From NCBI RefSeq assembly GCF_002157895.1, contig NZ_CP021377.1, forward strand, positions 620,001-684,000: a stretch of DNA of 64,000 bases. Reading direction: 5' to 3'. Below are positions 19,171 to 58,642 of this stretch, one piece after another. The notes beneath the pieces are model-generated. The model saw only the letters and a program-made list of their open reading frames with translations. It was not told where the DNA came from and searched no databases. The stretch's first letter is position 1. Each line of letters starts with the position of its first letter. The DNA comes from Oceanisphaera profunda. GTDB taxonomy: Bacteria > Pseudomonadota > Gammaproteobacteria > Enterobacterales > Aeromonadaceae. The position numbers and the translations under genes were made by a program.

Positions 19171-19246
19171 TGGTGGGGCATGCGGGATTCGAACCTGCGA
19201 CCAATTGATTAAAAGTCAACTGCTCTACCAACTGAGCTAATGCCCC
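19171..19246 (-). tRNA. tRNA-Lys(TTT)
   Basis: 76-nt tRNA beginning GGGGCATTAGCTCAG on the minus strand, anticodon TTT in GACTTTTAATC, CCA encoded. This copy is last in the direction of transcription. Confidence 0.95.
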
Positions 19247-19295
19247 GATAAATCGGTAGTACTCATAACTGCCATGCGGCACTTATCGTTAAAAT

Positions 19296-19371
19296 TGGTG
19301 GGTGATACTGGGCTCGAACCAGTGACCCCCTCCTTGTAAGGGAGGTGCTCTCCCAGCTGAGCTAATCACCC
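19296..19371 (-). tRNA. tRNA-Val(TAC)
   Basis: 76-nt tRNA beginning GGGTGATTAGCTCAG on the minus strand, anticodon TAC in CCTTACAAGG, CCA encoded. Confidence 0.95.
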
Positions 19372-19388
19372 TGGGACGTTCTTAAATC

Positions 19389-19464
19389 TGGTGGGGCATG
19401 CGGGATTCGAACCTGCGACCAATTGATTAAAAGTCAACTGCTCTACCAACTGAGCTAATGCCCC
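19389..19464 (-). tRNA. tRNA-Lys(TTT)
   Basis: Same sequence as the Lys copy at 19171-19246, one amplified Lys-Val unit further upstream. Confidence 0.95.
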
Positions 19465-19512
19465 GATAAATCGGTAGTACTGATAACTGCCATACGGCAC
19501 TTATCGTTAAAT

Positions 19513-19588
19513 TGGTGGGTGATACTGGGCTCGAACCAGTGACCCCCTCCTTGTAAGGGAGGTGCTCTCCCAGCTGAGCTAATCACCC
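19513..19588 (-). tRNA. tRNA-Val(TAC)
   Basis: Same sequence as the Val copy at 19296-19371, anticodon TAC, CCA encoded. Confidence 0.95.
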
Positions 19589-19605
19589 TGGGACCTTCTT
19601 AAATC

Positions 19606-19681
19606 TGGTGGGGCATGCGGGATTCGAACCTGCGACCAATTGATTAAAAGTCAACTGCTCTACCAACTGAGCTAATGCCCC
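19606..19681 (-). tRNA. tRNA-Lys(TTT)
   Basis: Same sequence as the other Lys copies, anticodon TTT. It begins exactly 217 nt from the copy at 19389. Confidence 0.95.
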
Positions 19682-19729
19682 GATAAATCGGTAGTACTGA
19701 TAACTGCCATACGGCACTTATCGTTAAAT

Positions 19730-19805
19730 TGGTGGGTGATACTGGGCTCGAACCAGTGACCCCCTCCTTGTAAGGGAGGTGCTCTCCCAGCTGAGCTAAT
19801 CACCC
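19730..19805 (-). tRNA. tRNA-Val(TAC)
   Basis: Same sequence as the other Val copies. It begins exactly 217 nt from the copy at 19513. Confidence 0.95.
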
Positions 19806-19822
19806 TGGGACCTTCTTAAATC

Positions 19823-19898
19823 TGGTGGGGCATGCGGGATTCGAACCTGCGACCAATTGATTAAAAGTCAACTGCTCTACCAACTGAGCTAATGCCCC
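19823..19898 (-). tRNA. tRNA-Lys(TTT)
   Basis: Same sequence as the other Lys copies. It begins exactly 217 nt from the copy at 19606. Confidence 0.95.
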
Positions 19899-19947
19899 GA
19901 TAAATCGGTAGTACTGATAACTGCCATACGGCACTTATCATTAAAAT

Positions 19948-20023
19948 TGGTGGGTGATACTGGGCTCGAACCAGTGACCCCCTCCTTGTAAGGGAGGTGC
20001 TCTCCCAGCTGAGCTAATCACCC
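19948..20023 (-). tRNA. tRNA-Val(TAC)
   Basis: Same sequence as the other Val copies. It begins a second repeat series with 131-nt spacing. Confidence 0.95.
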
Positions 20024-20078
20024 TGGGCTTACTGTTACCGTTTCTTGGCTAAAGCAACAAACCATAATTTTCATAATT

Positions 20079-20154
20079 TGGTGGGTGATACTGGGCTCGA
20101 ACCAGTGACCCCCTCCTTGTAAGGGAGGTGCTCTCCCAGCTGAGCTAATCACCC
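20079..20154 (-). tRNA. tRNA-Val(TAC)
   Basis: Same sequence as the other Val copies, with a spacer (CTGTTACCGTTTCTTGGCTA) shared with the next unit. Confidence 0.95.
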
Positions 20155-20209
20155 TGGGCTTTCTGTTACCGTTTCTTGGCTAAACCAACAAACCATAACC
20201 TTCATAATT

Positions 20210-20285
20210 TGGTGGGTGATACTGGGCTCGAACCAGTGACCCCCTCCTTGTAAGGGAGGTGCTCTCCCAGCTGAGCTAATCACCC
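20210..20285 (-). tRNA. tRNA-Val(TAC)
   Basis: Same sequence as the other Val copies, 131 nt from the copy at 20079. Confidence 0.95.
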
Positions 20286-20323
20286 TGGGACGTACTGTTA
20301 ACTCTTACTACTAAACACAAATC

Positions 20324-20399
20324 TGGTGGGGCATGCGGGATTCGAACCTGCGACCAATTGATTAAAAGTCAACTGCTCTACCAACTGAGCTAATGCCCC
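20324..20399 (-). tRNA. tRNA-Lys(TTT)
   Basis: First tRNA of the array in the direction of transcription, same sequence as the other Lys copies. It lies about 200 nt past the cpoB stop. No strong promoter is obvious in that gap, so part of the transcription may come through from cpoB. Confidence 0.95.
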
Positions 20400-49122: not shown

Positions 49123-50312
49123 TGAGCTTACTCGATCCTTTCTTCGGTGATTTTGGTGGCATGTATGTGCCACAAATCCTAATGCCCGCCTTGCTGCAAT
49201 TAGAAAAGGCCTTTGTCGACTCCCAGCAAGATCCAGAGTTTGATCGCGAATTTCGTGAACTGCTCACCGAATACGCCGGTCGCCCCACGCCATTAACCCG
49301 CGTGCGTAATTTGGCATCAAACACCAAGACCCGTATTTATCTTAAGCGGGAAGACCTACTGCACGGCGGCGCCCACAAAACTAACCAAGTGTTGGGCCAA
49401 GCATTACTCGCCAAGCGCATGGGTAAAACCGAAATTATCGCCGAAACCGGCGCTGGGCAACATGGCGTGGCCACTGCCTTGGCCTGTGCCTTGATGGGCT
49501 TAAAATGCCGCATCTACATGGGAGCCAAAGACTGCGCCCGCCAAGAGCCAAACGTGTTTCGTATGAAGCTGATGGGTGCCGAAGTAATACCGGTACACGC
49601 CGGCTCATCTACGCTCAAAGATGCCTGTAACGAAGCGCTGCGCGACTGGGCTGGTAACTACGAAACCGCCCACTATATGCTGGGCACCGCCGCCGGCCCG
49701 CACCCCTTCCCCACCATAGTGCGTGAATTTCAGCGCATGATAGGTGAAGAAACCAAAGTGCAAATCATGCAACACGAAGCCCATTTACCCGATGCGGTGA
49801 TCGCTTGCGTGGGCGGTGGCTCTAACGCCATTGGCATGTTTGCCGATTTTATCGACGAAGAAAATGTGCGCTTAATTGGCGTTGAGCCTGCCGGTAAAGG
49901 TATTAGCACCGGCGAGCACGGTGCCACCTTGGGCGAAGGCACCAAAGGCATCTTCTTTGGCATGTTGTCTTTGATGATGCACAACGAAGATGGCCAAGTA
50001 TCTGAGTCTTACTCAGTGTCTGCCGGCCTCGACTTCCCGTCTGTGGGCCCACAACACGCACATTTGGCCACCATTGGCCGCGCCGAGTATGTGTCAGTCA
50101 CCGATGATGAAGCACTGGATGCCTTCCAAGCATTAGCCCGCAATGAGGGTATTATTCCGGCACTGGAGTCCTCCCATGCTCTGGCATACGCCCTAAAAAT
50201 GGCGGAAGCAGAGCCTGAAAAAGAACAAGTATTAGTAGTTAACTTATCTGGCCGAGGCGACAAGGATATCTTTACCGTTGCTGAGATTTTAGCGCAAAAG
50301 GGAGAAATGTAA
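49122..50312 (+). CDS. trpB: tryptophan synthase beta subunit
   Basis: PLP enzyme joining indole and serine. The PLP lysine is in [24 protein letters not shown], the phosphate-binding loop in [14 protein letters not shown], and [13 protein letters not shown] is the catalytic Glu region. The 396 residues match E. coli (397). It overlaps trpA by one base. Confidence 0.98.
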
Positions 50313-51118
50313 TGAGCCGCTATCAACGCTTATTTGACCGCTTAGCTACGGCTAATCAAGGTGCGTTTGTGCCCTTTATTACTCTGGGCGATCCCAATCC
50401 GGCTGACTCGCTCAAAGTCATAGATGCGCTGATTGCCGGCGGCGCCGATGCATTGGAGCTCGGTATTCCCTTCTCCGATCCGGTAGCCGACGGCCCCACC
50501 ATTCAAGCCGCCAGTATTCGCGCCTTAAATGCCGGCACTCGCACTCAAACCTGCTTTGAGATGCTGACCCAAGTGCGCGCTAAATATCCCGAGATCCCTA
50601 TCGGCTTATTGGTCTACGCCAACCTAGTTTACGCACCGGGCATGGACAGCTTTTATGCTCGCGCCGCCGCCGCAGGTGTGGATTCAGTATTGGTGGCCGA
50701 TGCACCATTAGAAATGTCGGCGCCCTTTAGAGCCGCCGCCAGCAAAGCGGGCATAGAAACCATTTTTATCGCCCCGCCCAATGGCGACGAAGCCACACTA
50801 AAAGCCATTGCCGAAGCCGGTGCGGGTTATACGTATTTGCTAAGCCGCGCCGGTGTAACCGGTACCGAGACTAAAGCCGGCAAGCCGGTAGATACCTTGC
50901 TCGCCACCTTGGCTAAGTACAATGCACCGCCCTCTTTGCTGGGTTTTGGTATTTCTACCCCCGAGCAAGTGCGCGAGGCCATCAAGGCCGGTGCCGCCGG
51001 TGCTATCTCTGGCTCCGCTATCGTGAAAATCATCGAGCAACATCAAGATGATATTGATGCATTAACGGCTGCGTTGACGGCATTCGTGAAAGAGATGAAA
51101 GCGGCAACTAAAAAATAG
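50312..51118 (+). CDS. trpA: tryptophan synthase alpha subunit
   Basis: Cleaves indole-3-glycerol phosphate and passes indole to TrpB. The catalytic Glu is in [19 protein letters not shown], and the catalytic Asp in [24 protein letters not shown] and [12 protein letters not shown] complete the phosphate site. The 268 residues equal E. coli. It is the last gene of the operon; a repeat and terminator follow at once. Confidence 0.98.
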
Positions 51119-51199
51119 CGCCAAGCGCCGAGCACCAAGCGCCGAGCACCAAGCGCCGAGCTAAACAAAAATACCGAGCACAGGGCTCGGTATTTTTTT
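51117..51199 (+). terminator. terminator of the trp operon, preceded by ACCAAGCGCCGAGC repeats
   Basis: Three near-identical units of ACCAAGCGCCGAGC type (51117-51163) start at the trpA stop codon. The terminator stem follows with arms AAAATACCGAGC (51168-51179) and GCTCGGTATTTT (51185-51196) and a T-run. Confidence 0.9.
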
Positions 51200-51204
51200 G
51201 CCCG

Positions 51205-51620
51205 CCCCTTGCCGTCTTCCTGATGCACATCAGGATCTCGGTGTAGCTCTTAAAGACTAAAGCTATCTTGCAACGGAAGAACGCAGAAGAACACGGAAAA
51301 ATAGAGATCAGATCTGAAAGAGACCCTGATGGTAAGAGCGGGGGCTTGTAGGCGAACGCTTGCTCTCGCATTTCGCCGCAGGCGGAACAGGTGCATACAT
51401 AGCGACCGGCGCTTAGCGCTGCTCTTTAAGCCGTCTTCCTGATGCACATCAGGATCGGGATCTCGGTTTAGCTCTTAAAGACTAAAGCTATTTTTGCCAC
51501 GGAATCCACGGAAGAACACGGAAAAATAGGGATCAAATATGAAAAGGATCTAGATGGGGTAAGGGCTGGCACTTTGTAGAGGCCGCTTCAGCTGGCCGGT
51601 TTTGCGCAGCAAAACGTCTA
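51205..51620. repeat. stacked dispersed repeats between trpA and the tRNA-Arg fragment
   Basis: Paired-element halves with CCTGATGCACATCAGG (51218-51235 and again 51437-51454), CACGGAA-type copies (51270-51320 and 51492-51545), a TGTAGGCGAACGCTTGCTCT piece (51347-51366), and a GAGGCCGCTTCAGCTGGCCG hairpin with GCGCAGCAAAAC tail (51578-51615). No gene is seen. Confidence 0.7.
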
Positions 51621-51769: not shown

Positions 51770-51859
51770 TTGTGCTACTTACCCAAAAAAAGTTAGTATA
51801 CGAGTCAGCGCTGCCCCCATAGTTAAATGGATATAACAAGGTCCTCCTAAGACTTCGTT
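51770..51859 (+). pseudogene. 5' part of tRNA-Arg(CCT) with its promoter, cut after the anticodon arm
   Basis: TTGTGC (51770-51775) and TAGTAT (51794-51799) are 18 nt apart and form a tRNA-type promoter. From 51813, GCCCCCATAGTTAAATGGAT continues through the D-arm and anticodon arm (AGGTC-CTCCTAA-GACTT, anticodon CCT), closely like E. coli argW. After about 51855-51859 the sequence becomes AT-rich and has no T-arm (no TTCGA) and no TGGGGGC acceptor 3' strand. The break lies at the left edge of the element that carries the integrase, so this is probably an attL within the tRNA gene; the 3' part should lie at the far end. Confidence 0.8.
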
Positions 51860-52070: not shown

Positions 52071-53345
52071 ATGACTGACAAAATTAAGAAGACTAAGACA
52101 AAGCGCATAGCCTTGACCGACCCTAAAATTCGCGCGTTACCTCCGCCTGAAGAGGACCGTTACGATGTATACGACACTAAGTCACCGGGCCTGTTTATCA
52201 GGGTCGGTAAGCGCTCAAAAGTCTTCTATCTTCTTAGAGGTTCTGATCGCATTAAAATTGGTAACTTCAGGGATTTTCACCACATAAACGGGCCCGTGTT
52301 TGAGGCCCGAAGAGCAGCGAGTGACATCCTTCTCGATCTACGCCCCTCCTCTTCCCATGTCCCTTCTATGGCTCTTGGGGACTATTTGGATAAGCATTAC
52401 GCTGCGGAGAGAAAAGGACACAGAAGGCCCCTTAGGCCTCAAACTATAAAAAGCCTAAAAAGTTTTTTTTCAGATTGGCTATCTATTCCGATACATAGAA
52501 TAAATTCAGACTTACTTTCAAAAAAAATTACTGAATGGGAGAGCCCCACCACAATAGAAAATGGAAAGCTAAAACGCGGTAATACTAAAGCAACTATTAG
52601 AAAGAAGTTTATACTTATTAATGCTGTATTTAATCACCTTGTTCGCCAAGAGCACATTTTAAAGAACCCCTTTAACTCTCGGGGTTTTAAGATAGATACG
52701 GTAGAGCATAAGATTAACATTTATAATGATAATATTAGATATTCTGAGTTGATGAACTATTTAGTATCAGAAGAGCGTATTGAGTTAGAATTTGATGGTA
52801 ATCGCGGAAAAACGCATACAAGAGCAGCGCGAATATATATTGCGGTTATAATTCGTCTTGGACTAAGAGACAACGAAGCCAGACTAAATAATGCTGATAA
52901 TTTTGTTATTGAATCATCACTTGAAGGGGAGCAAAGACTTAGGCTGATCATACCCGCAGATATTACTAAAACAGGTAAAGGTAGAGAGGTTTTATTATCC
53001 TGCCCTATCCTTATACCAGCAATACGTGACTATAAAGATAATCATTATGTGCACAATGATGACGGACTGATGTTTTTTAACCAATCGACAAAGTCTGCAT
53101 ATACAAACAATCTCGGCCGCTCACTTTATCAAGAATTAAAAAAAGAATTTAAGCTAGGTATGAATGGTAATGGAAGTGGGCGAAAATATGATTTTCGCCA
53201 CACTCTGGCTACACGTGCTTATCGTGCAAAAGGCGATATAAAGCTTGTTGCCGACCTAATTGGAGATAGCGTTGAGACTGCATCGAAGTATTATGTGGCT
53301 AGCGATCCTGAGGCTGCAAGACTGGTTATATCTAACCTTGAGTAG
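52071..53345 (+). CDS. tyrosine recombinase (integrase) with N-terminal arm-binding domain
   Basis: Residues about 14-90 resemble the DUF4102-type arm-binding domain (TDPKIRALPPPEEDRYDVYD, SPGLFIRVGK). A core-binding domain follows (about 95-205) and then the catalytic domain (about 220-420). Visible catalytic positions: Arg266 in IRLGLRDNEAR, a Lys near TKTGKGR (about 300), Arg376 in YDFRHTLATRAY and Tyr407 or 408 near the end. The usual box-II His (first residue of HxLR) is Tyr373, and the usual His/Trp before the nucleophile is Asp399 in LIGDSVETASKYY. It lies about 210 nt from the tRNA-Arg fragment and reads away from it. Confidence 0.88.
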   Translation: MTDKIKKTKTKRIALTDPKIRALPPPEEDRYDVYDTKSPGLFIRVGKRSKVFYLLRGSDRIKIGNFRDFHHINGPVFEARRAASDILLDLRPSSSHVPSMALGDYLDKHYAAERKGHRRPLRPQTIKSLKSFFSDWLSIPIHRINSDLLSKKITEWESPTTIENGKLKRGNTKATIRKKFILINAVFNHLVRQEHILKNPFNSRGFKIDTVEHKINIYNDNIRYSELMNYLVSEERIELEFDGNRGKTHTRAARIYIAVIIRLGLRDNEARLNNADNFVIESSLEGEQRLRLIIPADITKTGKGREVLLSCPILIPAIRDYKDNHYVHNDDGLMFFNQSTKSAYTNNLGRSLYQELKKEFKLGMNGNGSGRKYDFRHTLATRAYRAKGDIKLVADLIGDSVETASKYYVASDPEAARLVISNLE

Positions 53346-53420
53346 CATTTTTTATTATGTGATATTTCCAATCTGTTGTTCAATGTTTTTATTTTTTGAT
53401 CTACCCTTGGATAATTATAA

Positions 53421-53454
53421 ACAACTGTCGCCAGCACTTTCTGGCGGCTGTTGT
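53421..53454. terminator. hairpin between convergent integrase and rep genes
   Basis: ACAACTGTCGCCAG (53421-53434), a 6-nt loop and CTGGCGGCTGTTGT (53441-53454) pair with two mismatches. It lies about 75 nt past the integrase stop and could end that transcript. No strong T-tract follows. Confidence 0.6.
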
Positions 53455-53597
53455 ATATCTTTCAGAAATTCAGTAAATAAATGTCTTTTTTCTTTGTTTT
53501 TGGCTCTAATTCACTTCTTTTATAATCTAATTTATATATTTTCTTTTAATAAAAAATCTAATCAAGGGCTTTTGATTAGTCTTGTATCTTGATCTTA

Positions 53598-53622
53598 CTT
53601 GGGTGGCGGGTGGGCTTGGCCC
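53598..53622. other. G-rich stem/possible G-quadruplex next to the rep stop
   Basis: GGGTGGCGGGTGGG (53601-53614) stands out in very AT-rich DNA, with three GGG tracts and one GG, and pairs partly with the following GGCCCCTGCC. It lies just past the stop of the minus-strand rep gene, so it could be a terminator stem or an origin-associated structure. Confidence 0.4.
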
Positions 53623-53627
53623 CTGCC

Positions 53628-55466
53628 TTATTCACTGTAAATCTTGAATTTTCTTTTCTTTATTAGCATAAAGCCGACATTAAGTCCTATTATTGACTTT
53701 TTGACTCCTCCCTCATCCTCTTTCTCTTCGTATGCATTTTCTATATCTATAAACTCAATTTTTTTTATAAAATCGGCATAATCTATGTTATTTTTTAGAT
53801 TCCCTTCCTTATCCTCTTCCATTCTTGTTGCTATTAATTCAATTTCATCATATCTATTCATTTGATTCACATGGTAATTTATTGCATCCCTTACTCTTTT
53901 TGATTTATTTTCAAACACTTCTTTAGCTTCTTTAAACGTCATGTATGATACTTCATCTTCTTCTTCATCACTTATATTAAACTCATCGTCGTGAATTAAC
54001 GCCAACAACTCCTGTTTTATTTTTATTTCTTTGTGTGTGTGTGTCTTTTTTATAAATTTGCTTTTTTGAAACTCTCTTTCTTTAAATCCGTTGTTTTCTG
54101 CATTCTTTATCTCTCTAATGACCCTATATATTGTTTTTATTCCACTTACGCCGAACGTCTGAAAAGAGCGAACGTTCAGACTTGATTTCCACGCGTCCAC
54201 CGCTTTTAGTGCTAATATATTTATTCCCTTTTCTTTAACTCCTAGGTTATTTGTTGTTGTTAGTTCTTTTATCGAGTCCAGCCCTACATGCTTCATTATG
54301 TACTTCGATAAATATGATGCTGCACTTGCTACCTTATTCCCCTTTAGTTCCTCTCCATTTTCATCATAACCTGATTCAATTATTTTTATTGAAGATGAGT
54401 TTCCGGAATGTAAAAAGTAAAAATTAAAAATTTCTTTATATCTTTCTTTTAGTTCTTTTTTACAAAACAATAAAATATGCCAGTGCGGGCATCCATCCTT
54501 ATGCGGCTCTATTACAGTAAATCCAAATCCTGAATTAATTCCAAATCTCAGGTCTTTAAATCCTTCTTTTTGGAGCTGCTTTCTTAGGTTTCCCCATTTT
54601 TTATCTCTCCATCTTTTTGCATCAGATGCGCTCTCTCCTTTATTACTATTCTTTCCTTTGGATGGGTTAGGATGAAAATTCGCTGGTGCTGTTATTGTTA
54701 TAAATAACCAAGTCATCCCTTTTTCTTTTGCTATATTTTCATATCCTTTTATTTCAATGTACAGTTCATTAAATTTATGACTTGCCGTCTTTTTTATTTC
54801 ACTTAAGGTAAGCTTCTTTCCGTTAGTAATTATGCTTTTTGATTTTAGAAAGCTCTCTCCATTTTCCAATTGCTCCTCTCTTCTTTTTAGAGAAAGTTCT
54901 CCTACGTATTTGTTATGCTCTCCCACCTCTTTATTTTGCTGTTCAGCGTGAAGCACACACTTTTTAGAATATCTGAAATATGAATTAGATACTCTTGTAG
55001 ATTTGCAGAAATCAAGAACTAGGTCTTTTCTTATTTCCTTTGTGTATGTACGTTCTTTATACGTCTTCATTCTTCCGGTTTTTTCGTTTAATATTTTTTC
55101 TTTTTTAGTCGTTTTTTTAACTTTAATGAAATTAGGAAAATGATTTTTTAGGTCCTGCCTTAACAAAGAAGACAGCTCTTCATCAAATTTTTCAGCATTA
55201 CCCGCGCACTCAATTAATAACTCAAGGATTCTATTCCCGATAGCTCTCCCCATTGCTTTTATATCTTTTTCTTTAACTTTTTCATCTAAAAAATAACTTA
55301 CTGGTGGAGCATAAAAAATAGTGTTAAATGACATCTTATATTCAAGCGAACCCTTGTATTCTTTGATTTCATTCGCTACTTTTTCATACTCATCATCTTT
55401 TGTTTTTTTTTGTGTTACTTCTAATTCCTTCGAAATTGATATCAGAGACACCACATGCTTATCCAT
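53628..55466 (-). CDS. HUH replication endonuclease, phage P2 gpA-like
   Basis: Rolling-circle replication initiator. Motif 1 is WLFITITAPANFHPN (about residues 253-267), the HUH metal motif is CPHWHILLF (His328, His330), and the tyrosine motif SYLSKYIMKH has two Tyr three residues apart (385, 389), as in P2 gpA and phiX174 A. Downstream, RSFQTFGVSGIKTIYRVIREI matches the gpA family pattern. The C-terminal third is very rich in Lys, Glu and Asp. The coding sequence is far more AT-rich than the chromosomal genes, pointing to a different origin. No capsid or tail genes lie near. Start at the ATG at 55466, with AAAGGA before it. Confidence 0.88.
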   Translation of the reverse strand: MDKHVVSLISISKELEVTQKKTKDDEYEKVANEIKEYKGSLEYKMSFNTIFYAPPVSYFLDEKVKEKDIKAMGRAIGNRILELLIECAGNAEKFDEELSSLLRQDLKNHFPNFIKVKKTTKKEKILNEKTGRMKTYKERTYTKEIRKDLVLDFCKSTRVSNSYFRYSKKCVLHAEQQNKEVGEHNKYVGELSLKRREEQLENGESFLKSKSIITNGKKLTLSEIKKTASHKFNELYIEIKGYENIAKEKGMTWLFITITAPANFHPNPSKGKNSNKGESASDAKRWRDKKWGNLRKQLQKEGFKDLRFGINSGFGFTVIEPHKDGCPHWHILLFCKKELKERYKEIFNFYFLHSGNSSSIKIIESGYDENGEELKGNKVASAASYLSKYIMKHVGLDSIKELTTTNNLGVKEKGINILALKAVDAWKSSLNVRSFQTFGVSGIKTIYRVIREIKNAENNGFKEREFQKSKFIKKTHTHKEIKIKQELLALIHDDEFNISDEEEDEVSYMTFKEAKEVFENKSKRVRDAINYHVNQMNRYDEIELIATRMEEDKEGNLKNNIDYADFIKKIEFIDIENAYEEKEDEGGVKKSIIGLNVGFMLIKKRKFKIYSE

Positions 55467-55613: not shown

Positions 55614-55931
55614 CTACCTCATCCACTCTGTACGTTTAATGTACTCCTCAGATCCACCCGGATAATATTTACTTCCATACTTTATTTGCATATTAATAAC
55701 ATTATCTCTGCCGATAAGTTCGTGTGTTTCAACACCTCTGCTCATCACTTTCATAAAGGTTAAAATATCTTCCATTAACGCAGGTTCACTTGATGCGTAA
55801 TGCATAATGGCAAGCACATCACAAAGATGATTTGTTGAGTCATAGCCATTAAGTAATAAGCTAGCAATGAATTCTTTGTCTCTGTTGTATAAGCGGTAAC
55901 CCACTTCAACGTGTGTCTGATTAAATCTCAT
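55614..55931 (-). CDS. hypothetical protein of the mobile element, 105 residues
   Basis: The frame starts MRFNQTHVEVGYRLYN and ends IKRTEWMR. It looks globular and soluble, with an LLLNGYDSTNHLCDVLAIMHYASSEPALMEDILTFM helical centre and a Tyr/Gly-rich end. I do not recognise a family. It lies directly upstream of rep in the same direction and could be transcribed with it, but a hairpin stands between them. The base composition is less AT-rich than rep. Possible roles such as copy control or superinfection protection are not supported by any motif. Confidence 0.55.
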   Translation of the reverse strand: MRFNQTHVEVGYRLYNRDKEFIASLLLNGYDSTNHLCDVLAIMHYASSEPALMEDILTFMKVMSRGVETHELIGRDNVINMQIKYGSKYYPGGSEEYIKRTEWMR

Positions 55932-56605: not shown

Positions 56606-58642
56606 ATGAATCAACAGAAAATTAAGCAGTTAGAAACCGAGCTGTGGGACAGTGCCAACTCTCTTCGTGCGAATTCAAAGCTTACCGCTGCTGAGTACAA
56701 AGACCCGGTGTTAGGCTTAATTTTGCTGCGCTATGCACAAAATCGCTATGAACAAGCCAAGGTACAAGTAGCGGCTAGCATTCCCACTAGCCCCCGTGGT
56801 GGTAAGCGCGAAGCGACCAAAGCAGACTTTTTAGCCGCCGGGGCTATGATGCTGCCCGAAAAATCCCAATATGAGCATTTGGCTGGCCTCCCTGAAGCAG
56901 AAGATATCAGCGACGCTATTAATGAAGCAATGGGCTTAATTGAGCAAGAATATCCCGACTTAGCAGGGGTGTTACCGCGCAACTATCAAGAGATGGACTC
57001 CGATTTGTTACGTGAGCTGATCCGGGTGTTTAACAAAGACGCAGTGAAGAGCTTAACGGGTGATGTGTTTGGTCGTATTTATGAGTTTTTCTTAATGAAA
57101 TTCTCGATGGATGGTGCTGGTGCGCAAGAAGGCGGCGAGTTCTTTACTCCACCTTCTTTGGTGCAGCTCATCGTTAATATGATTAAACCCGACCATGGGA
57201 TTATTCACGATCCAGCTTGTGGTTCAGCGGGTATGTTTGTACAAACCGGACACTTTATTGAAGAACAGCACAAAAATGCCTCGGTTAACCAACGCATTAC
57301 TTGTTATGGCACCGAGCTAAAGTCTAACAACACCCGCTTGGCGAAAATGAACTTAGCCATACACGGTATCGAAGGAAAAATCAGTGAGAATAATAGTTTT
57401 TACTCCGATCCTCATGATTTAGTAGGCAAGTGTGACTTTGTAATGGCCAACCCGCCGTTTAACGTGAAAAAAGTCGATAAAAGCAAAGACTACGTTAAAA
57501 ATGATTCACGGTTGTTTAGCGATATTGGTATTCCTAAGGCCGATAACGGCAACTACATGTGGATACAGTATTTTTATCACTACCTGAATGATCAAGGTCG
57601 TGCAGGCTTTGTGATGGCTAGTTCAGCTACCGATGCGGGTGGCAGTGAGAAAGATATTCGCCAAAAGCTAATAGAAACCGATGCCGTAGATTGCATTGTG
57701 TCGGTGGGTAATAACTTCTTCTATACCCGTTCGCTACCCTGTCATGTGTGGTTTTTAGATAAAGATAAGCCAGCGGCGAACAAGAAAAAAATATTAATGA
57801 TTGATGCGCGTAACACCTTTCGCGTAGTCACTAATACTATTAATGATTATTCACCAGGGCAGCTCACTAATTTTAACGCCATTACTGAGTCGTACCGGGG
57901 TGATAAAGCGGCTATCGCCAACGCTCAAAAATCACACAACGCCGTGGCCGTCACCTTAGCGGCTATTATTGCCACTGCTATTAACATCTTACGAACGGCC
58001 TGCCAAAGCATTATTAATGCTCCAAATGAAGATGACTTTAAAGGCGTGAAGCCCAACTTAAAGTTTAATGATATTATCGAAGAATTAAATGAAGTATTAA
58101 GCATCGAAGACCACAGTGATTTTGACCTGTGTCAGCAATGGGTAGCGCGTTTCTCGCAGCCCGTTGAAAAGCTGTTTGCCTTGGTAGCGCAGTATCAAGC
58201 TAACTCAGATAAGGCCTTAGCAGGTTTTAGAAAGTTAGATAAAAAAGCGCAAGCTACCGATGATGCTAAGACTATTAAAAAGAAGCTGGACGCTAACAAT
58301 AAACTGCTAAAAGCCCTAACGACGGCGCTTAACAGCCACCAAGCACTGCTTAAGCAAAGCTTGGCTGACTACAGCCAACTGATCAGCGACTGGCAAACAC
58401 TGCGTGAGAACTTCCCTAACGATCAATATCGAGACGTGGAAGGACTGTGCAAAGTAGTGGATCGCGACGAGATCATAGAAAACGATTACAGCTTAACGCC
58501 GGGTCGCTATGTGGGTTATAGCGTGCAGGTAGATATGGATTTTGATTATCAATCAAAAATGTTTGATATAAAATCTGAACTAACGCAGCTTAATGACACT
58601 GCACAAAATCTGATGAAAACTATTTTAGAGGTGAAATTATGA
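56606..58642 (+). CDS. hsdM: type I restriction-modification system methyltransferase subunit HsdM
   Basis: N6-adenine methyltransferase subunit. An N-terminal helical HsdM domain (about residues 1-140) is followed by the SAM site DPACGSAGMFVQT (about 202) and the catalytic NPPF (about 285). At 678 residues it is clearly longer than the common 500-530 form; the extra C-terminal part (about 440-678) is helical and probably coiled-coil (KKKLDANNKLLKALTTALNS). ATGA overlap with hsdS shows translational coupling. The composition is similar to the chromosome, not to the AT-rich rep gene. Confidence 0.95.
   Translation: MNQQKIKQLETELWDSANSLRANSKLTAAEYKDPVLGLILLRYAQNRYEQAKVQVAASIPTSPRGGKREATKADFLAAGAMMLPEKSQYEHLAGLPEAEDISDAINEAMGLIEQEYPDLAGVLPRNYQEMDSDLLRELIRVFNKDAVKSLTGDVFGRIYEFFLMKFSMDGAGAQEGGEFFTPPSLVQLIVNMIKPDHGIIHDPACGSAGMFVQTGHFIEEQHKNASVNQRITCYGTELKSNNTRLAKMNLAIHGIEGKISENNSFYSDPHDLVGKCDFVMANPPFNVKKVDKSKDYVKNDSRLFSDIGIPKADNGNYMWIQYFYHYLNDQGRAGFVMASSATDAGGSEKDIRQKLIETDAVDCIVSVGNNFFYTRSLPCHVWFLDKDKPAANKKKILMIDARNTFRVVTNTINDYSPGQLTNFNAITESYRGDKAAIANAQKSHNAVAVTLAAIIATAINILRTACQSIINAPNEDDFKGVKPNLKFNDIIEELNEVLSIEDHSDFDLCQQWVARFSQPVEKLFALVAQYQANSDKALAGFRKLDKKAQATDDAKTIKKKLDANNKLLKALTTALNSHQALLKQSLADYSQLISDWQTLRENFPNDQYRDVEGLCKVVDRDEIIENDYSLTPGRYVGYSVQVDMDFDYQSKMFDIKSELTQLNDTAQNLMKTILEVKL

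What the first reader, a model, noticed from the sequence alone, without database searches (positions are those of the whole stretch)
51770..51859. tRNA-Arg(CCT) gene split at the left border of the mobile element
The promoter, acceptor 5' strand, D-arm and whole anticodon arm of an argW-like tRNA are present, but the T-arm and acceptor 3' strand are missing and replaced by AT-rich element DNA. Most elements that use tRNA genes restore the gene. Here the visible half is not restored, so crossover may lie near the anticodon loop and the 3' half should sit at the far end of the element. If this is the only tRNA-Arg(CCT) gene, decoding of AGG codons would change.
Basis: partly seen in the sequence, partly recalled or inferred. 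Interest (0 to 1): 0.75.

Follow-up and report, generated by a model that had tools for sequence, protein, structure and literature searches.

The report
Mobile island swaps host's arginine tRNA
A small mobile DNA element has inserted itself into the middle of a bacterium's only found tRNA gene for the AGG codon, breaking it, and appears to make up for the damage by carrying its own complete, different copy of the same tRNA, a trick so far described mainly in bacterial viruses.

Summary
Confirmed and extended. Window 51813-51855 is the 5' half of the host tRNA-Arg(CCT) gene, cut at the anticodon loop. The 3' half lies 1.2 kb beyond the window (window-equivalent 65163-65207). The joined halves are identical (75/75) to the intact gene in three same-genus genomes, and one of these keeps the empty site in register. 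The two ends share 13 bp; neither end restores the gene. The decisive feature is outside the window: 167 bp inside the right core the element carries a complete, different tRNA-Arg(CCT) gene (71% identical to the host gene), the only intact one found in the genome. So AGG decoding is probably preserved by replacement. Three further elements with related integrases, in Aeromonas australiensis and two genomes of another family, share the architecture: same cut, and a divergent cargo tRNA-Arg(CCT) 151-170 bp inside the far core (4 of 4). The logic is that of 'tRNA-dependent lysogeny', described in actinobacteriophages (mBio 2024), but these look like relaxase-bearing islands, with no virion family seen in our scans, in Gammaproteobacteria, at another tRNA. 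New variant of a known kind. Expression of the cargo tRNA and host dependence on it are inferred, not shown.

The parts
51813..51855 (+). 5' half of the host tRNA-Arg(CCT) gene (acceptor 5' strand, D-arm, anticodon arm), ending with the 13-bp core; attL. Its 3' half (attR) lies outside the window at window-equivalent 65163-65207 (L004 13664-13708)
51843..51855 (+). left copy of the shared core CCTCCTAAGACTT (anticodon loop CTCCTAA plus flanks); right copy at window-equivalent 65163-65175, beyond the window
52071..53345 (+). tyrosine integrase, 424 aa, reading away from the split gene and starting about 215 bp after the 13-bp core
   Evidence: (PF00589, at the cut-off)
53628..55466 (-). GPA-type replication initiator-like protein, 612 aa
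   Evidence: PF05840, 3e-31; phrog_91
55614..55931 (-). 105-aa ORF of unknown function
   Evidence: no family
56606..58642 (+). type I restriction-modification, HsdM
   Evidence: PF02384, PF12161
58639..59952 (+). type I restriction-modification, HsdS
   Evidence: PF01420
59966..63175 (+). type I restriction-modification, HsdR
   Evidence: PF04313, PF18766
63654..64000 (+). start of a Mob_Pre/MobV-like relaxase gene; it runs on to window-equivalent 64883 (L004 12155-13384). Beyond it, outside the window, lies the complete cargo tRNA-Arg(CCT) at window-equivalent 64919-64995 (L004 13420-13496; genome 684919-684995)
   Evidence: Mob_Pre, below cut-off; MobV 8e-12, below cut-off; cargo tRNA:

Best explanation
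A 13.3-kb integrative, probably mobilizable, element has recombined by its tyrosine integrase at the anticodon loop of the host's single tRNA-Arg(CCT) gene. Element and host site share only a short core (13 bp here, CCTCCTAAG in all four elements), so neither junction rebuilds the gene: the 5' half stays at the integrase end and the 3' half at the other end. The element instead carries its own complete tRNA-Arg(CCT) gene just inside the right end, which takes over the role of the broken gene. Shown from sequence: the split, the exact empty site, the short core, the cargo tRNA, that no other intact CCT gene was found, and the same arrangement in four related elements. Inferred: that the integrase acts at this core, that the cargo tRNA is transcribed, charged and used, that cells need it, and that precise excision restores the host gene.
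For: Split and far half. The joined gene is identical to that of three same-genus genomes, and G014 keeps the empty site in register. Cargo tRNA: ARAGORN, Rfam 64.2 bits, intact stems. Only CCT gene found: ARAGORN over the Rfam-guided regions gives 91 tRNAs, CCT 1 of 91; a loose pattern over the whole genome finds only the cargo and the 3' half plus one unrelated match. Same architecture in G033, G443 and G595; in each of these genomes the CCT pattern occurs exactly twice, cargo plus 3' half. Empty site for G595 in two Aeromonas records, where the two flank matches overlap by 15 and 14 bp. The four integrases are one side of a branch (96/91; 94% of bootstrap trees) in a 21-row tree. The four cargo tRNAs are 65-83% identical to one another yet keep their stems, with one mismatched pair in one cargo.
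Against: No expression or essentiality data. The promoter upstream of this cargo tRNA is not above chance (shuffle P 0.31). The same genome has tRNA-Arg(TCT), which could read AGG by wobble (recalled), so loss of CCT might be tolerated. One of the other 22 same-genus genomes (G019) shows no CCT match by the pattern, which may be a gap, a variant or a real absence. The tRNA count rests on a search that scored 150 of 205 candidates plus the pattern. Only four elements were found. The relaxase matches of the window element are below curated cut-offs.
Confidence: 0.86

Rival explanations
1. The cargo tRNA is there to serve the element's own AGG-rich genes, or is a chance passenger, and the broken host gene is simply tolerated because tRNA-Arg(TCT) reads AGG.
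For: AGG is 17 of 3635 codons in six element genes against 8 of 12574 in 33 long ORFs of the window's chromosomal part. tRNA-Arg(TCT) is present.
Against: The cargo has the very anticodon of the split gene and lies 151-170 bp inside the right core in 4 of 4 elements whose gene content is otherwise mostly different. 21 of 22 other same-genus genomes keep one CCT gene by the pattern.
Confidence: 0.1
2. Classical tRNA-gene island in which one end restores the target.
For: This is the usual arrangement (PMC8371274, passages); G361, with a weakly related integrase, shows it at the same tRNA (complete gene plus a displaced 3' fragment of the same sequence).
Against: The tRNA near attR is not joined to either half: it lies 167 bp inside, is 71% identical to the host gene, and both halves stand alone.
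Confidence: 0.02
3. The two halves are transcribed apart and joined, as in archaeal split tRNAs, or are separated by an intron.
For: The halves would still pair along all three stems examined.
Against: 13.3 kb of mobile DNA with an integrase lies between them; Rfam finds no intron in the window, only its 12 tRNAs; bacteria have no known tRNA trans-splicing (recalled); a complete CCT gene exists. No RNA test was possible.
Confidence: 0.01

Closest known systems
tRNA-dependent lysogeny of actinobacteriophages (Fionnbharth, LeBron, Gaia and others; PMC10865867; abstract, sections 10 and 11 and passages read)
   Same: Tyrosine integrase; short core in a tRNA gene (8-17 bp for the phages its Table 2 lists as not rebuilding the tRNA, 9-14 bp here); tRNA not rebuilt; [quoted passage not shown]
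   Different: There: temperate phages of Actinobacteria, tRNA-Lys, -Ile2 and -Leu, with the need for the phage tRNA shown by mutants. Here: relaxase-bearing islands of Gammaproteobacteria with no virion family seen, tRNA-Arg(CCT), no experiment.
Replaced tRNA-Leu(UAG) in Sinorhizobium meliloti phage-related sequences (PMC11476347; passages read)
   Same: Host tRNA gene inactivated and replaced by an element-borne isoacceptor that resembles the gene of other taxa.
   Different: Phage-related sequence, Alphaproteobacteria, other tRNA.
Lactobacillus johnsonii prophage Lj965 (only as cited in the Discussion of PMC10865867)
   Same: tRNA not rebuilt at the junction; prophage codes for a cognate tRNA.
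   Different: A prophage, of a Lactobacillus host.
tRNA-gene islands as defined by Islander (PMC4383910; only the search listing with the start of the abstract seen)
   Same: Tyrosine integrase, tRNA-gene target, split gene.
   Different: There the island restores the gene and leaves a displaced fragment; here it does not restore it.

Membership tests
tRNA-dependent lysogeny | tyrosine integrase and an attB site within a tRNA gene | tested here: met
   PF00589 at its cut-off, phrog_1 integrase 5e-23; split tRNA-Arg(CCT) with exact empty site
tRNA-dependent lysogeny | short common core, tRNA not rebuilt at attL or attR | tested here: met
   13-bp core; no complete tRNA at either junction
[quoted passage not shown]
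   cargo tRNA-Arg(CCT)
tRNA-dependent lysogeny | the element tRNA is required for stable integration | not testable with these tools
   needs a deletion experiment
tRNA-dependent lysogeny | the element is a temperate phage | tested here: not met
   No virion, packaging or lysis family in Pfam for the 7 main ORFs of the window element, nor in PHROGs for the 4 of those 7 that were scanned. For the other three elements none among the families listed (Pfam, PHROGs; lists cut at 25)
integrative and mobilizable element | integrase plus relaxase, without its own conjugation machinery | tested here: inconclusive
   Integrase met; relaxase Mob_Pre 21.9 bits (cut-off 25.5) and MobV 45.6 bits (cut-off 100), 38-42% identity in the listed plasmid matches; no conjugation family among the 7 ORFs. 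PF03432 relaxase clear in G033 and G443
integrative and mobilizable element | excises and is mobilised by a helper | not testable with these tools
   no experiment
classical restoring tRNA-gene island | target tRNA gene regenerated at one end, displaced fragment at the other | tested here: not met
   both ends carry half genes
intron-interrupted tRNA gene | self-splicing intron between the halves | tested here: not met
   no intron family in the window at gathering score; the last 1.2 kb of the element, past the window, was not scanned with Rfam

The most novel reading that the evidence does not exclude
A lineage of non-viral mobilizable islands uses tRNA replacement as its standing mode of integration. 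By cutting at the anticodon loop (shared CCTCCTAAG) and bringing a whole tRNA, the island need not match the rest of the host gene. Once inserted, the host's AGG tRNA with the CCT anticodon is supplied only by the island, so crude loss of the island would cost the cell that tRNA while clean excision gives the native gene back. This would be tRNA-dependent integration without lysogeny, with the tRNA acting as a maintenance device.
Probability: 0.55. Interest if true: 0.7.

Novelty: new variant of a known kind. Interest (0 to 1): 0.57.

Why it matters
It suggests that tRNA replacement at the insertion site is not only a phage trick: a deep group of island integrases keeps it in at least two bacterial families (4 of 4 members found). 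It explains one class of broken tRNA genes beside islands, warns that tools which expect a rebuilt tRNA may misplace such islands, and gives a testable case of a mobile element taking over a host's only tRNA of one anticodon. PMC10865867 (Discussion) says that the prevalence outside actinobacteriophages needs study; this is one answer.

Tried and rejected
Rejected: degenerate relic (both halves intact and complementary); restored gene at the far end; intron; chance tRNA-like match. Changed anticodon loop in the cargo to escape tRNA-cutting enzymes: the loop CTCCTAA is unchanged in all 8 sequences (the search was itself by this loop, so a changed loop could have been missed elsewhere).

Led nowhere: relatives of the integrase in plasmids, phages, viral contigs and genome contigs; the second genome-contig scan gave only the Aeromonas element plus two weak matches in unrelated MAGs. 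Of 27 loci with weakly matching integrases only L042 (G361) has a tRNA-Arg(CCT) part nearby, and that one is classical (these loci reach at most 1.5 kb to each side, so others may have been missed). Promoter scans are not above chance for the G000 cargo and native genes; of seven upstream regions only the G595 native gene stood out (shuffle P 0.003; G443 cargo 0.057; the G033 native gene was not tested there). A terminator on the gene's strand between half-gene and integrase was not found in G000, G033 or G443; in G595 the one match is the anticodon hairpin itself, so read-through from the old tRNA promoter into int is possible but untested. Integrase-blind class scan (369 genomes, 219 with a match): the list of places was cut; among the places listed only G000 has two different 3' parts within 300 bp. 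G359, G258 and G151 have pairs on one contig with identical sequence, and other pairs lie on different contigs. G044, G289, G291 and G362 have more than one match but their places were not shown.

Rows left out: the tree holds the 4 focal integrases and 17 of 27 weakly matching loci (18 tried; L045 gave no frame). In the family scans of the other three elements, ORFs under 120 aa, three ORFs split across fetched pieces (one is the G595 relaxase, known here only by its likeness to the others) and L060:1892-2251, L090:15544-15948 and L091:5040-5432 were not scanned.

Full report
The observation. The window is bases 620001-684000 of a one-contig 3,508,860-bp genome. At 51813-51855 lies the 5' half of a tRNA-Arg(CCT) gene, from the acceptor strand to just past the anticodon loop, followed by AT-rich DNA. 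No complete tRNA is found there. Past the window, the 3' half (core, T-arm, acceptor 3' strand and CCA) is at window-equivalent 65163-65207. The two ends share the 13-bp core CCTCCTAAGACTT. The joined halves give a 75-nt gene identical to the intact tRNA-Arg(CCT) of three same-genus genomes (L010, L019, L029). In G014 (L029, L055) the site is empty and in register: the left flank is 92-93% identical over 3.3 kb and 0.4 kb and the right flank 85% over 91 bases.

The element. It is 13,320 bp (one core copy): a tyrosine integrase about 215 bp from the split gene, a GPA-type replication initiator-like protein, HsdM, HsdS and HsdR, and a Mob_Pre/MobV-like relaxase whose scores are below the curated cut-offs. 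In 2-kb steps G+C falls from about 0.53 to 0.33-0.45. Upstream of the split gene lies a trpA gene (PF00290).

The cargo tRNA. 167 bp before the right core is a complete tRNA-Arg(CCT) (L004 13420-13496; Rfam 64.2 bits), with a terminator-like hairpin right after it. It is 71% identical to the host gene. The best listed match in the plasmid collection is 89.6%, in an Aeromonas record, at the end of the stretch that matches the flgT-side flank of the Aeromonas australiensis site, so probably that strain's native gene; the best phage match is 87.0%. ARAGORN over the regions around the Rfam tRNA matches gives 91 tRNAs, with Arg ACG 3, CCG 1, TCT 1 and CCT 1; the CCT gene is the cargo (the Rfam search scored 150 of 205 candidates). 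A loose CCT pattern over the whole genome finds the cargo, the 3' half and one unrelated match. In 21 of the 22 other same-genus genomes the CCT pattern occurs exactly once; G019 has none.

Relatives. The integrase is rare. Matches at E <= 1e-6 are 4 of 394 genomes of the order, and the two family scans add only weak ones (2 in 12 genomes; 6 in 74). The four are the window (G000), G033, G443 and G595. All four have the 5' half cut at the same place, with an integrase starting 216-256 bp after the common core and reading away from it, and at the far end a complete cargo tRNA-Arg(CCT) followed after 151-170 bp by the core and host 3' half. The elements span 13.3, 34.9, 19.7 and 44.5 kb (G000, G033, G443, G595). 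The shared core is CCTCCTAAG in all four, 13 bp in G000 and 14 bp in G595. In G033, G443 and G595 the CCT pattern occurs exactly twice per genome, cargo plus 3' half. For G595 the empty site is seen in Aeromonas caviae and A. media records, where the two flank matches overlap by 15 and 14 bp. Empty sites for G033 and G443 were not looked for.

Divergence with function kept. Cargo and host tRNAs are 71, 73, 84 and 77% identical within G000, G033, G443 and G595, and the cargos are 65-83% identical to one another, but the acceptor, anticodon and T stems pair throughout, except one mismatch in the anticodon stem of the G033 cargo. The host halves, 13 to 45 kb apart, also still pair, so the insertions are young or still excise (inference). 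The integrases are only 26% identical between G000 and the others, yet they are one side of a branch (96/91; 94% of bootstrap trees) in a tree with 17 weakly matching integrases (unrooted, some long branches, and the make-up of the G595 row departs from the rest). A weakly related integrase in G361 uses the same tRNA in the classical restoring way; for the other 26 weak loci no tRNA-Arg(CCT) part was seen within the short stretches held.

What the elements are. G033, G443 and G595 share a relaxase (31-42% identity; PF03432 in G033 and G443). No capsid, tail or terminase family is among those listed for them (lists cut at 25) or for the window element (7 ORFs, 4 of these). They carry different restriction or defence genes: type I in the window, HamA next to a DEAD-box helicase in G033, a SacI-type nuclease with a methylase in G443, an MmeI-type enzyme in G595.

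Mechanism. Most likely the integrase recombines at the anticodon loop, the host gene is broken, and the cargo tRNA takes over. Transcription of the cargo is not shown: promoter matches are at chance level for this copy, and in this element it might also be read from the relaxase gene 35 bp upstream. Whether the cell needs the tRNA is not shown either, since tRNA-Arg(TCT) is present. Element genes use AGG more than the neighbouring chromosome (17 of 3635 against 8 of 12574 codons), so a second benefit to the element is possible.

Known or new. The principle was published as tRNA-dependent lysogeny for actinobacteriophages in 2024 (PMC10865867; abstract, sections 10 and 11 and passages read), with a Lactobacillus prophage cited there and a Sinorhizobium phage-related case (PMC11476347, passages). 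PMC12429752 (passages) reports prophages that do not do it. In their listings I saw no report of it in non-phage mobilizable islands, in Gammaproteobacteria or at tRNA-Arg(CCT); most listed papers were not read, and the library lacks most subscription journals.

Noticed in passing
window 19171-20399: Cluster of 11 tRNA genes on the minus strand, 5 tRNA-Lys(TTT) and 6 tRNA-Val(TAC); within each kind the Rfam scores are equal.
   Followed up: no
window 51117-51161 and 51211-51557: Three 17-nt repeats 14 bp apart and blocks repeated about 219-225 bp apart, just downstream of trpA (50312-51118) and next to the split tRNA.
   Followed up: no
window 52071-55466 and L004 12155-13384: AGG and AGA arginine codons are much commoner in the integrase, Rep and relaxase genes than in HsdM/HsdR or the neighbouring chromosome.
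   Followed up: partly
L053 3017-7185; L088 8457-11383; L090 6722-9415: The G033 island carries a HamA protein next to a DEAD-box helicase, Hachiman-like defence (system name recalled); the G443 island a SacI-type nuclease and a cytosine methylase; the G595 island an MmeI-type enzyme.
   Followed up: partly
window 52071-53345 with the L053, L068 and L069 integrases: The active-site neighbourhood reads YDxRHT in all four integrases and GDS in three of four, where HxxR and GH are usual (recalled); G595 has GHS.
   Followed up: no
L088 12534-15095 and L090 410-2683: Large proteins of unknown function shared by the G443 and G595 islands at 27% identity; only a weak, below cut-off ATPase match for the first.
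   Followed up: no
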